Of a stretch of DNA of 64,000 bases, positions 4,401 through 7,400 are shown piece after piece. The translations under genes and the position numbers were made by a program. The number at the start of each line of letters is the position of its first letter. The stretch's first letter is position 1. The notes beneath the pieces are model-generated. The model ran no database searches. It worked only from the letters and a program-made list of their open reading frames with translations, and was not told the DNA's origin. The DNA is from Tubulanus polymorphus (taxonomy: Eukaryota; Nemertea; Palaeonemertea; Tubulaniformes; Tubulanidae), in NCBI RefSeq assembly GCF_964204645.1, contig NC_134029.1:6519001-6583000 (forward strand), written 5' to 3'.

Positions 4401-7400
4401 CTGATCTACTTGCTGTTAGACCAGACGTGGCCGTTCGGAAAACCGCTTTGCAAAACGTGGCTCGTATTCGACTATTTGGCCTGCGCCGGTTCGTCGTTGA
4501 CGCTGACGCTCATCAGCTACGATCGTTATTTACTGATCACGGAGGGCGCTCATTACAACATCCGTCAGACGAAACGTAAAGCGAAATTGCGTCTGCTCGC
4601 GCTGTGGATACTGCTGGTGTTGTTGTACGTGCCGGCGATCACGTTGTGGGACGTGATACGCGGCAGCAGCATCGTTCCGTCCGACGATTGCGACGTCGAA
4701 TTCTACGACAACGTCTCCTACACGCTGGTCATGTCCGTTTTCGAATTCCTCCTGCCGTTTACGACGATTTTCGTGTTGAACATTTTGATCTATCGCAGCA
4801 TACGTCGTCGTTCGCGCCAGAAGATTACACCTCATCAGCCGAAGGCGTCCCCGTCTGTGATCAACGCCGCTGGCGGTAATCAAAATAACATCGCCCAGCA
4901 ACAAAAAGACAAACAGATATCGGCGATTCTAAAACGTGATCGACGCGCCGCCAGGAATCTGTCGGTTTTAGTTTGCGCGTTCGTCATCTGCTGGACGCCG
5001 TATTCGGTATTCACATTCGCCCTGTCGATCGACGGCACTCTCATCGATAATCTCAATTTGAACTTTCTCTACGAATTTCTGAATATGTTGTTGTACTTCA
5101 ATTCGGCGTTGAACCCGATTTTGTACGCGGGCACGAACGCGATGTTCCGTGAGAATTTCGTGCGGTTGCTGTGCTGCTGTTGCGCGAGGTGCGGCCTCGT
5201 GAAGGGAAACAAGTCGAGGAACGACAAACGATCGAACAGCAACGAAGAACAAACTCATTCCGTCTCAGTAATTAGTGCCAATGCTTAAAAGTAAGCCTCG
5301 CACGTTCGCTGCCAGCTTGATAATACGGTGTTGCCCCCAATTGCAAATACACATCTAAATACTTGTAGGTTGGCATGGGAGCTGTTACGTACATAGTCAG
5401 CCTTTGGTCAAAATTGACCAGTCTGATTGAGACAGTTTGATCACATTGTCAGCCAATCAGGAACTGTGTCATTTCCCGGTGCAAATATCTAACTGTAAAT
5501 AGGATGAATCAGCTACAAATATTATTCATCGACAGCACCGGTGACAGAACCGAAAGTACAAAGAATATGTAGCTGGCAGCCAATGTGTTAAAAGCCTCAA
5601 TAAATTTCACTTGTGTTAGATTTTATTGTCATCAAAGAAATGCTTTGATAACGTTTCACTCACAAAGTATTTCGTAGGTAGTATGTTGGGGGTCTCTGAA
5701 ACTTGAGTACTATGAACTATTAACCGCTTCAAGACTAAGATCATTGCTTAACAACGCATGAGTATAAGCCTGCATAATTGCTTATGAAATATATATAACT
5801 GACTTGATCTCATATCTATGAATATAAGTCAGAAATAACCAATAACAATTCTTACCTGGAAATTGTCTTTGAAAACATTGATATCATTAAAGAACTCTTC
5901 CATCGAGTATTTCTTCGGATCAAATGCGTAATATTTGGCCATGTCTTTGAAGAGCTTCGACATTTGTTTGTGCATCGACTCGAGCACTCCATACTGTTCT
6001 TTTGACTGATTGACGAAATCGTTGAACGATATGTCAAGGAAACGTAAAAACGTTTTCGGTCGGTCTAATGCATTATGAGAATGATACATCTCTGGTATGC
6101 ATCAGAAAAAACAAGTGAGAAATCTTGGAGTATTGATTTTCACTGGTTTCTCTTTGTAGTATCTATTACCAGTATGAACTGGAAAATAAAACTATAGCGG
6201 GCTCTGTCAATGATTGACCTGAAAGTTCCATTAGTCACAATGATACAGTGGAACCATTTAGACTTATTTTCACTGGATAATAAAGCTGGACTTAAAGGAG
6301 CTTTCATCTAGTTCTCTAGACTCGTTCACTAACTGGGGTTTCCTCTGATGACATCCTTAAGCTCCAGAGACCAGTTGCTCAAAAGTTGGTCAGAGTTAAC
6401 CAGTGGATAGTTGCCATAGTGACAATTCAAAGTTCATTGTTACTATGCCATCTATCCGCCGATTATCTCTAACCAACTTTTGAGCAACTGGCCCCTGTAA
6501 GTTAAGCTACACAATTCTATATGATGATACAGTATTAATGCAACGTAAAGGAAGCATTAAGTCATTAGCGAAGCGGGCCCCATGTAAACTTAATTTATCC
6601 CATTGAAATCTATGAAATCTCTATCATTCTGTAACTCTGATATGCACCCGAATAAAAGGATATTTTCATCACTTCTTCAAATCTATCGTTATCGCCTTGC
6701 TTCTTGAAATTCTTGACATCCAATTCCATATTTTTCAGCGATTTTTCCATGCCTTTCAAGTTTTTCGACAGCGTTTCTTCAGATACTGGAAACAAGACAT
6801 ACGACATCGATTTATTAGCTGGATCTAAAAAATGGGCGCAAATCAACCAGTGTTTGCTCTAACAAATTTCATTCAATTATGTGATGTAATTCAAACCCCC
6901 TTCATCTAGATCATTTGAAACCAATCTTTATGAATCCTATATCATTGTTATAGATGAATTCCCTTAAATACCAAATTATGCAGACTAAGTGGGCTTTATT
7001 GCTTCTTGTTACATTTTTTTCAATACCTCGCACTGCTTTCGCCAAATGGGTGAAATCCTCCGGGAAAGCCAGACAGTCGGGATAATTGTGTTCAACCACT
7101 TGAGCGAGATAATGTAGAAGCGTTGTTTTGTTGTCCTGAGATTTAGTATTCGTCAACTAAAAAATCATCGAAGAAATTTCGAAAGAAACATTTTAATAAA
7201 CTCAAAAACCTCGAATTCAAATCGTTCCTATGCATTCCATTCGATAATAGCTTATATGATTTTTCTTGATTCTTGATAGAACAAACAATTTCAGAAGTAG
7301 CGAATATACATTTCCTCTTGTTATGCTGTGTTAGACATTAAGAGAACTTGTACACGAAGGAAACTGATATAAAATCAATATCAACAACGCGAACTAAATA

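What the first reader, a model, noticed from the sequence alone, without database searches (positions are those of the whole stretch)
6021..6663. AT-AC minor-class intron interrupts the FH2 domain of diaphanous
The sequence has ATATCCTTT at the 5' end, TTCCTTGAC as branch site and an AC 3' end at 12-13 nt. These are minor-spliceosome consensus elements. The frame works only with this intron, and the joined protein aligns with other formins without a gap. AT-AC introns are a small minority even of minor introns.
Basis: partly seen in the sequence, partly recalled or inferred. Interest (0 to 1): 0.75.

Follow-up and report, generated by a model that had tools for sequence, protein, structure and literature searches.

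The report
Minor-class intron in diaphanous formin gene
A gene for an actin-building protein in this animal genome is interrupted by a rare AT-AC intron that needs the cell's second, minor splicing machine; two sister genes in the same genome carry a minor intron at exactly the same spot, so the intron is probably very old, although minor introns in this gene family were already known in humans.

Summary
On the minus strand, window 6663 to 6021 is a 643-nt intron in the FH2 domain of a diaphanous (DIAPH) gene: MK|ATATCCTTTT...TTCCTTGACATATCGTTCAAC|DF, phase 0. The spliced protein aligns with DIAPH1 without a gap at the junction. The seven other introns between the FH1-FH2 exons are GT-AG. The full signature is expected 0.013 times per window by shuffling. 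The same genome has U11, U12, U4atac, U6atac and a CENATAC-like gene, and its U11, U6atac and U12 pair fully with this intron's signals.

New here: among ten formin loci found in this genome, the GRID2IP/delphilin and the FMNL-related (MWHF-type) formin also have a U12-type intron at the identical codon boundary and phase, one with GT-AG and one with AT-AC ends. The other seven have none at that boundary. This points to one minor intron older than these duplications, with later losses and a subtype switch.

It is a member of a known kind: human diaphanous-related formins are already listed as 100% minor-intron genes (PMC6865273). 'The frame works only with this intron' is slightly overstated: a poor in-frame GT-AG alternative exists. 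No RNA evidence was available.

The parts
6664..6785 (-). FH2 exon upstream of the minor intron, ends ...[10 protein letters not shown]
   Evidence: open frame, phase 0 at end; aligns to DIAPH1
6021..6663 (-). AT-AC U12-type (minor-class) intron, 643 nt, phase 0
6654..6663 (-). 5' splice site ATATCCTTTT; positions 4-10 pair 7/7 (one G-U) with own U11 AAAAGGG and 7/7 with own U6atac AAAAGGA
6033..6041 (-). branch site TTCCTTGAC; pairs 8/8 (one G-U) with own U12 GTAAGGAA with the A at 6034 bulged
6021..6022 (-). 3' splice site terminal AC, last base 13 nt from branch A
5856..6020 (-). FH2 exon downstream, [10 protein letters not shown]...KDNFQ (55 aa)
6356..6506 (-). palindromic repeat inside the intron (71-nt arms, 82% complementary), a mobile-element-like family with about 40 sites recovered in the genome (lower bound)
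5856..11220 (-). FH1-FH2 region of the DIAPH gene, nine exons; the seven other introns between them are GT-AG
1418..2070 (-). C-terminal DIAPH exons: coiled part 2070-1969, autoregulatory (DAD-like) part 1528-1418

Best explanation
The interval is a genuine U12-dependent AT-AC intron of a DIAPH gene. U11 should recognise ATATCCTTT and U12 the TTCCTTGAC branch site. U6atac should then replace U11, and the exons should join as MK|DF. If it is retained, translation stops after 18 foreign residues and the C-terminal part of FH2 is lost. It is one copy of an old minor intron that already sat at this codon boundary before the DIAPH, GRID2IP and FMNL-related (MWHF-type) formins separated. It was later lost, at the level of this boundary, in the other formins of this genome, and the termini switched between AT-AC and GT-AG in at least one copy. 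Shown here: signals, frame, machinery genes, pairing, shared position. Inferred: actual splicing, ancestry, direction of the subtype switch. The confidence given is for the U12-type AT-AC intron; for the inherited old origin see the section on the most novel reading.
For: Exact signals and frame. Gap-free DIAPH1 alignment at the junction. Joint signature 0.013 expected per window. U12 111.8 bits, U6atac 96.5 and 93.5, U11 98.1, U4atac 73.0 bits, all above Rfam cut-offs, and a CENATAC N-terminal exon at 38.8 bits against a cut-off of 25.3. Full pairing with own U11, U6atac and U12. Identical alignment column and phase 0 in L017 (VMS|GTATCCTTTC...TTCCTTCACCGATCACTATCAG|HF) and L016 (QLD|ATATCCTTTT...ATCCTTAATTCATAACCGCAC|DF). 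The L017 gene has a PDZ-domain frame upstream, as GRID2IP does. The L016 gene has a Drf_FH3 domain upstream and its FH2 is closest to FMNL3, then DAAM1. Human diaphanous-related formin genes are 100% minor-intron genes (PMC6865273) and DIAPH2 is named as a U12-intron gene (PMC7612377).
Against: No RNA reads. No other animal genome could be searched, so orthologous position in other species is not tested here. The branch site G at position 7 is a variant of TTCCTTAAC. Seven of ten formin loci lack an intron at that boundary, so common ancestry needs several losses. L016's subtype assignment rests on a domain hit and best-match order, not on a tree. Published work groups MWHF with FMNL and DAAM, both of which lack the intron here.
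Confidence: 0.95

Rival explanations
1. A major-class GT-AG intron is used instead: GAA|GTGATGAAAATATCC ... GATTTCGTCAATCAG|TCAAAAGAA, in frame, removing VMKDFVNQ. A weaker form is a twintron in which both are used.
For: It exists in the sequence and keeps the frame.
Against: Its donor scores -0.5 against 2.8 to 12.2 for the gene's own donors. It deletes eight residues that have counterparts in DIAPH1. It would leave the perfect U12 signals and the matching introns of L016 and L017 unexplained.
Confidence: 0.02
2. An AT-AC intron spliced by the major spliceosome, as known for a few sodium-channel introns.
For: Such introns exist (PMC2831892).
Against: Those have G at +5; this one has C at +5 within ATATCCTTT and a U12 branch site with full U12 pairing.
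Confidence: 0.02
3. The three formin introns at the same place were gained independently at a favoured insertion site, or copied between paralogues, rather than inherited. (This is a rival to the old origin, not to the intron itself.)
For: Only three of ten formin loci have it. FMNL and DAAM, considered closer to L016's type, lack it.
Against: All three are of the rare U12 class with identical phase and column. Minor introns are under 1% of introns in most organisms, so three independent gains at one boundary are unlikely. The flanking protein is strongly diverged between the paralogues, against recent copying.
Confidence: 0.15

Closest known systems
Minor introns of human diaphanous-related formins (PMC6865273; DIAPH2 also in PMC7612377)
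   Same: Same gene family, minor class.
   Different: Exact position and termini in human could not be read here. The passage read does not mention GRID2IP or MWHF.
AT-AC U12-type introns generally (Moyer et al. 2020, PMC7367187; Lin et al. 2010, PMC2831892)
   Same: ATATCCTTT donor, U12 branch site, short branch-to-AC distance; switching between AT-AC and GT-AG is documented there among orthologues.
   Different: Here the subtype difference is seen between paralogues in one genome.
U12-type introns shared between ancient paralogues (Vosseberg et al. 2022, PMC9120149)
   Same: The same logic: a shared position implies presence before duplication.
   Different: That work concerns duplications before the last eukaryotic common ancestor; its main text does not mention formins.

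Membership tests
AT-AC U12-type (minor) intron | 5' splice site [A/G]TATCCTTT | tested here: met
   ATATCCTTTT at 6663-6654
AT-AC U12-type (minor) intron | branch site close to TTCCTTRAC, branch A about 10-14 nt from the 3' end | tested here: met
   TTCCTTGAC, 13 nt
AT-AC U12-type (minor) intron | no strong polypyrimidine tract before the 3' site; terminal AC | tested here: met
   ATATCGTTCAAC before the exon, by inspection
AT-AC U12-type (minor) intron | minor snRNAs in the genome, complementary to the signals | tested here: met
   U11, U12, U4atac, U6atac found; pairing 7/7, 8/8, 7/7 for U11, U12, U6atac
AT-AC U12-type (minor) intron | removal in vivo dependent on U12/U6atac | not testable with these tools
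   no RNA data
DIAPH formin | FH1-FH2 with FH2 closest to DIAPH1; C-terminal autoregulatory region | tested here: met
   PF02181 1.2e-104; DIAPH1 4e-111, ahead of DAAM1 2e-53; DAD-like exon
GRID2IP (L017 gene) | PDZ domains N-terminal to FH1-FH2 | tested here: inconclusive
   PDZ 1.6e-12 upstream on the same strand of the same contig, but linkage in one transcript is not shown; FH2 is slightly closer to DAAM1 than to DIAPH1 in PDB
MWHF/FMNL-related formin (L016 gene) | G-DID-DD (Drf_FH3) N-terminus and FH2 near FMNL | tested here: inconclusive
   Drf_FH3 7.9e-8 upstream; FH2 closest to FMNL3; no tree built
inherited minor intron shared by formin paralogues | same alignment column, same phase, same class | tested here: met
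   column 129, phase 0, U12 signals in three genes
inherited minor intron shared by formin paralogues | present at the same position in orthologues of other animals | not testable with these tools
   no other animal genome held

The most novel reading that the evidence does not exclude
A single minor-class intron sat at this FH2 codon boundary before the DIAPH/GRID2IP lineage and the FMNL/DAAM/MWHF lineage separated, that is in or before the opisthokont ancestor. It has been kept as U12-type in three formin subtypes of one living animal with a subtype switch between paralogues, while its interior is freely remodelled (lengths 234, 431 and 643 nt, with a mobile-element palindrome in DIAPH).
Probability: 0.6. 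Interest if true: 0.5.

Novelty: new member of a known kind. Interest (0 to 1): 0.38.

Why it matters
Minor introns are rare and often old. Finding the same one in three distantly related formin genes of one genome gives a dated anchor for minor-intron persistence, and a natural comparison of AT-AC and GT-AG subtypes at one ancestral site. It also implies that three actin regulators in this animal depend on the minor spliceosome for a complete FH2 domain.

Tried and rejected
Tested the in-frame GT-AG alternative and rejected it on donor strength and protein conservation. Checked the INF-type formins (L018, L022): both have an intron four codons downstream with GT donors of ordinary type, not the same position; the FHOD-type (L019) has a phase 2 GTAAGT intron about 7 nt upstream, also not the same. 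FMNL (L021), DAAM (L023) and two FMN-like genes (L020, L024) read straight through. A first pairing test gave wrong results because minus-strand snRNA loci are stored in genome orientation; redone. A third U6atac-like copy (L012, 40.5 bits) is degenerate and was not used. A literature search for minor introns with GRID2IP found nothing, and none of the papers whose passages I read describes this intron position.

Full report
Observation. The minus strand of the window carries a DIAPH gene. I built the FH1-FH2 region from nine exons between 11220 and 5856; the frame is open throughout. With one C-terminal exon added, the product matches Pfam FH2 over positions 2-372 of 372 at 1.2e-104. Its best solved-structure relative is DIAPH1 at 4e-111, well ahead of DAAM1 at 2e-53. 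Eight introns separate these exons; seven are GT-AG. The eighth, 6663 to 6021, begins ATATCCTTTT and ends TTCCTTGACATATCGTTCAAC. It is 643 nt and phase 0, between Lys and Asp of ...[17 protein letters not shown].... (Intron strings and lengths printed include one exon base too many; the true length is 643.) The DIAPH1 alignment has no gap at the junction; the nearest gap is one residue about ten residues upstream.

Chance. The donor motif alone (0.40 expected per window) and the branch motif alone (1.40 expected) mean little. The ordered pair with a terminal AC at the proper distance is expected 0.013 times per window and found once. It falls where a conserved reading frame must be spliced.

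Alternatives within the sequence. Retention adds 18 foreign codons and then a stop. An in-frame GT-AG pair does exist, GAA|GTGATG...AATCAG|TCA, so 'the frame works only with this intron' is not strictly true. Its donor scores -0.5 on a matrix from this gene's own donors, which score 2.8 to 12.2, and it would remove eight residues that have counterparts in DIAPH1.

Machinery. The genome holds U12 (111.8 bits), two good U6atac copies (96.5 and 93.5), U11 (98.1), U4atac (73.0) and an exon matching CENATAC/CCDC84 (38.8 bits against a cut-off of 25.3). CENATAC is a minor-spliceosome protein (PMC8280824, seen as an abstract); that it matters especially for AT-AN introns is from my own knowledge. Read in the right orientation, U11 AAAAGGG and U6atac AAAAGGA each pair 7/7 with TCCTTTT, and U12 GTAAGGAA pairs 8/8 with TTCCTTG(A)C with the branch A bulged.

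Paralogues. The FH2 search gave 29 exon matches in the genome, which I grouped into ten formin loci including the window. The subtype names rest on sequence motifs I recognised, supported by domain or structure searches only where stated. In L017 the FH2 is cut at VMS|GTATCCTTTC...TTTTCCTTCACCGATCACTATCAG|HF, a U12-type GT-AG intron of 431 nt. In L016 it is cut at QLD|ATATCCTTTT...ATCCTTAATTCATAACCGCAC|DF, a U12-type AT-AC intron of 234 nt. On a MAFFT alignment all three introns lie after the same column, phase 0, one residue before an invariant Phe. FMNL, DAAM and the two FMN-like loci have no intron there. Two INF-type loci have a GT intron four codons later, and FHOD a phase 2 GT intron slightly earlier. 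The L017 gene has a PDZ-domain frame about 15 kb upstream on the same strand, which identifies it as GRID2IP if they belong to one gene. The L016 gene has a Drf_FH3 domain upstream and its FH2 is closest to FMNL3, then DAAM1, fitting the MWHF subtype.

Evolution. Pruyne (PMC5628938) infers that DIAPH and GRID2IP split early in the metazoan lineage, and that MWHF belongs with FMNL and DAAM in a second lineage already separate in the opisthokont ancestor. If L016 is MWHF, a shared inherited intron is at least that old. The seven loci without it require losses. Independent gain of three U12-class introns at one boundary is the rival and I judge it less likely. This is inference from one genome; no other animal genome was available. 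AT-AC/GT-AG switching is documented among orthologues (PMC2831892).

What is known. Human diaphanous-related formins are listed as 100% minor-intron genes (PMC6865273) and DIAPH2 as a U12-intron gene (PMC7612377). AT-AC makes up 26% of human U12-type introns (PMC7367187). A study of exon-intron structure in molluscan diaph genes counts 24 coding introns in gastropods; its text does not use the word 'minor' (PMC10598177). The finding is therefore a new member of a known kind; the shared position across three formin subtypes is the part I did not find described.

Noticed in passing
window 4113-5285, + strand: An intronless rhodopsin-family GPCR reading frame (7tm_1, 2.2e-57) lies antisense inside the next DIAPH intron, between the exons ending at 5856 and starting at 2070.
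   Followed up: partly
window 6356-6506: A palindromic repeat inside the minor intron belongs to a family with about 40 sites recovered across the genome at roughly 88-93% identity (the search scored only 40 candidates, so this is a lower bound).
   Followed up: partly
window 7783-8207: The GT-AG intron between FH2 exons 8264 and 7721 holds nested inverted repeats (58, 39 and 31 nt arms), looking like another mobile-element remnant.
   Followed up: no
L012, G000:C8:15260197-15260307: A third, degenerate U6atac-like copy (40.5 bits) with a changed 5' end, probably a pseudogene.
   Followed up: no
window 13980-13700: Short repeated inverted segments (for example GGCTGTTGACTAACAGCC and GGCTGTTAGTCAACAGCC) in a DIAPH intron, seen by eye.
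   Followed up: no
L025 5400-6800: A tandem array of near-identical units downstream of the L016 formin gene gives repetitive frames on both strands.
   Followed up: no
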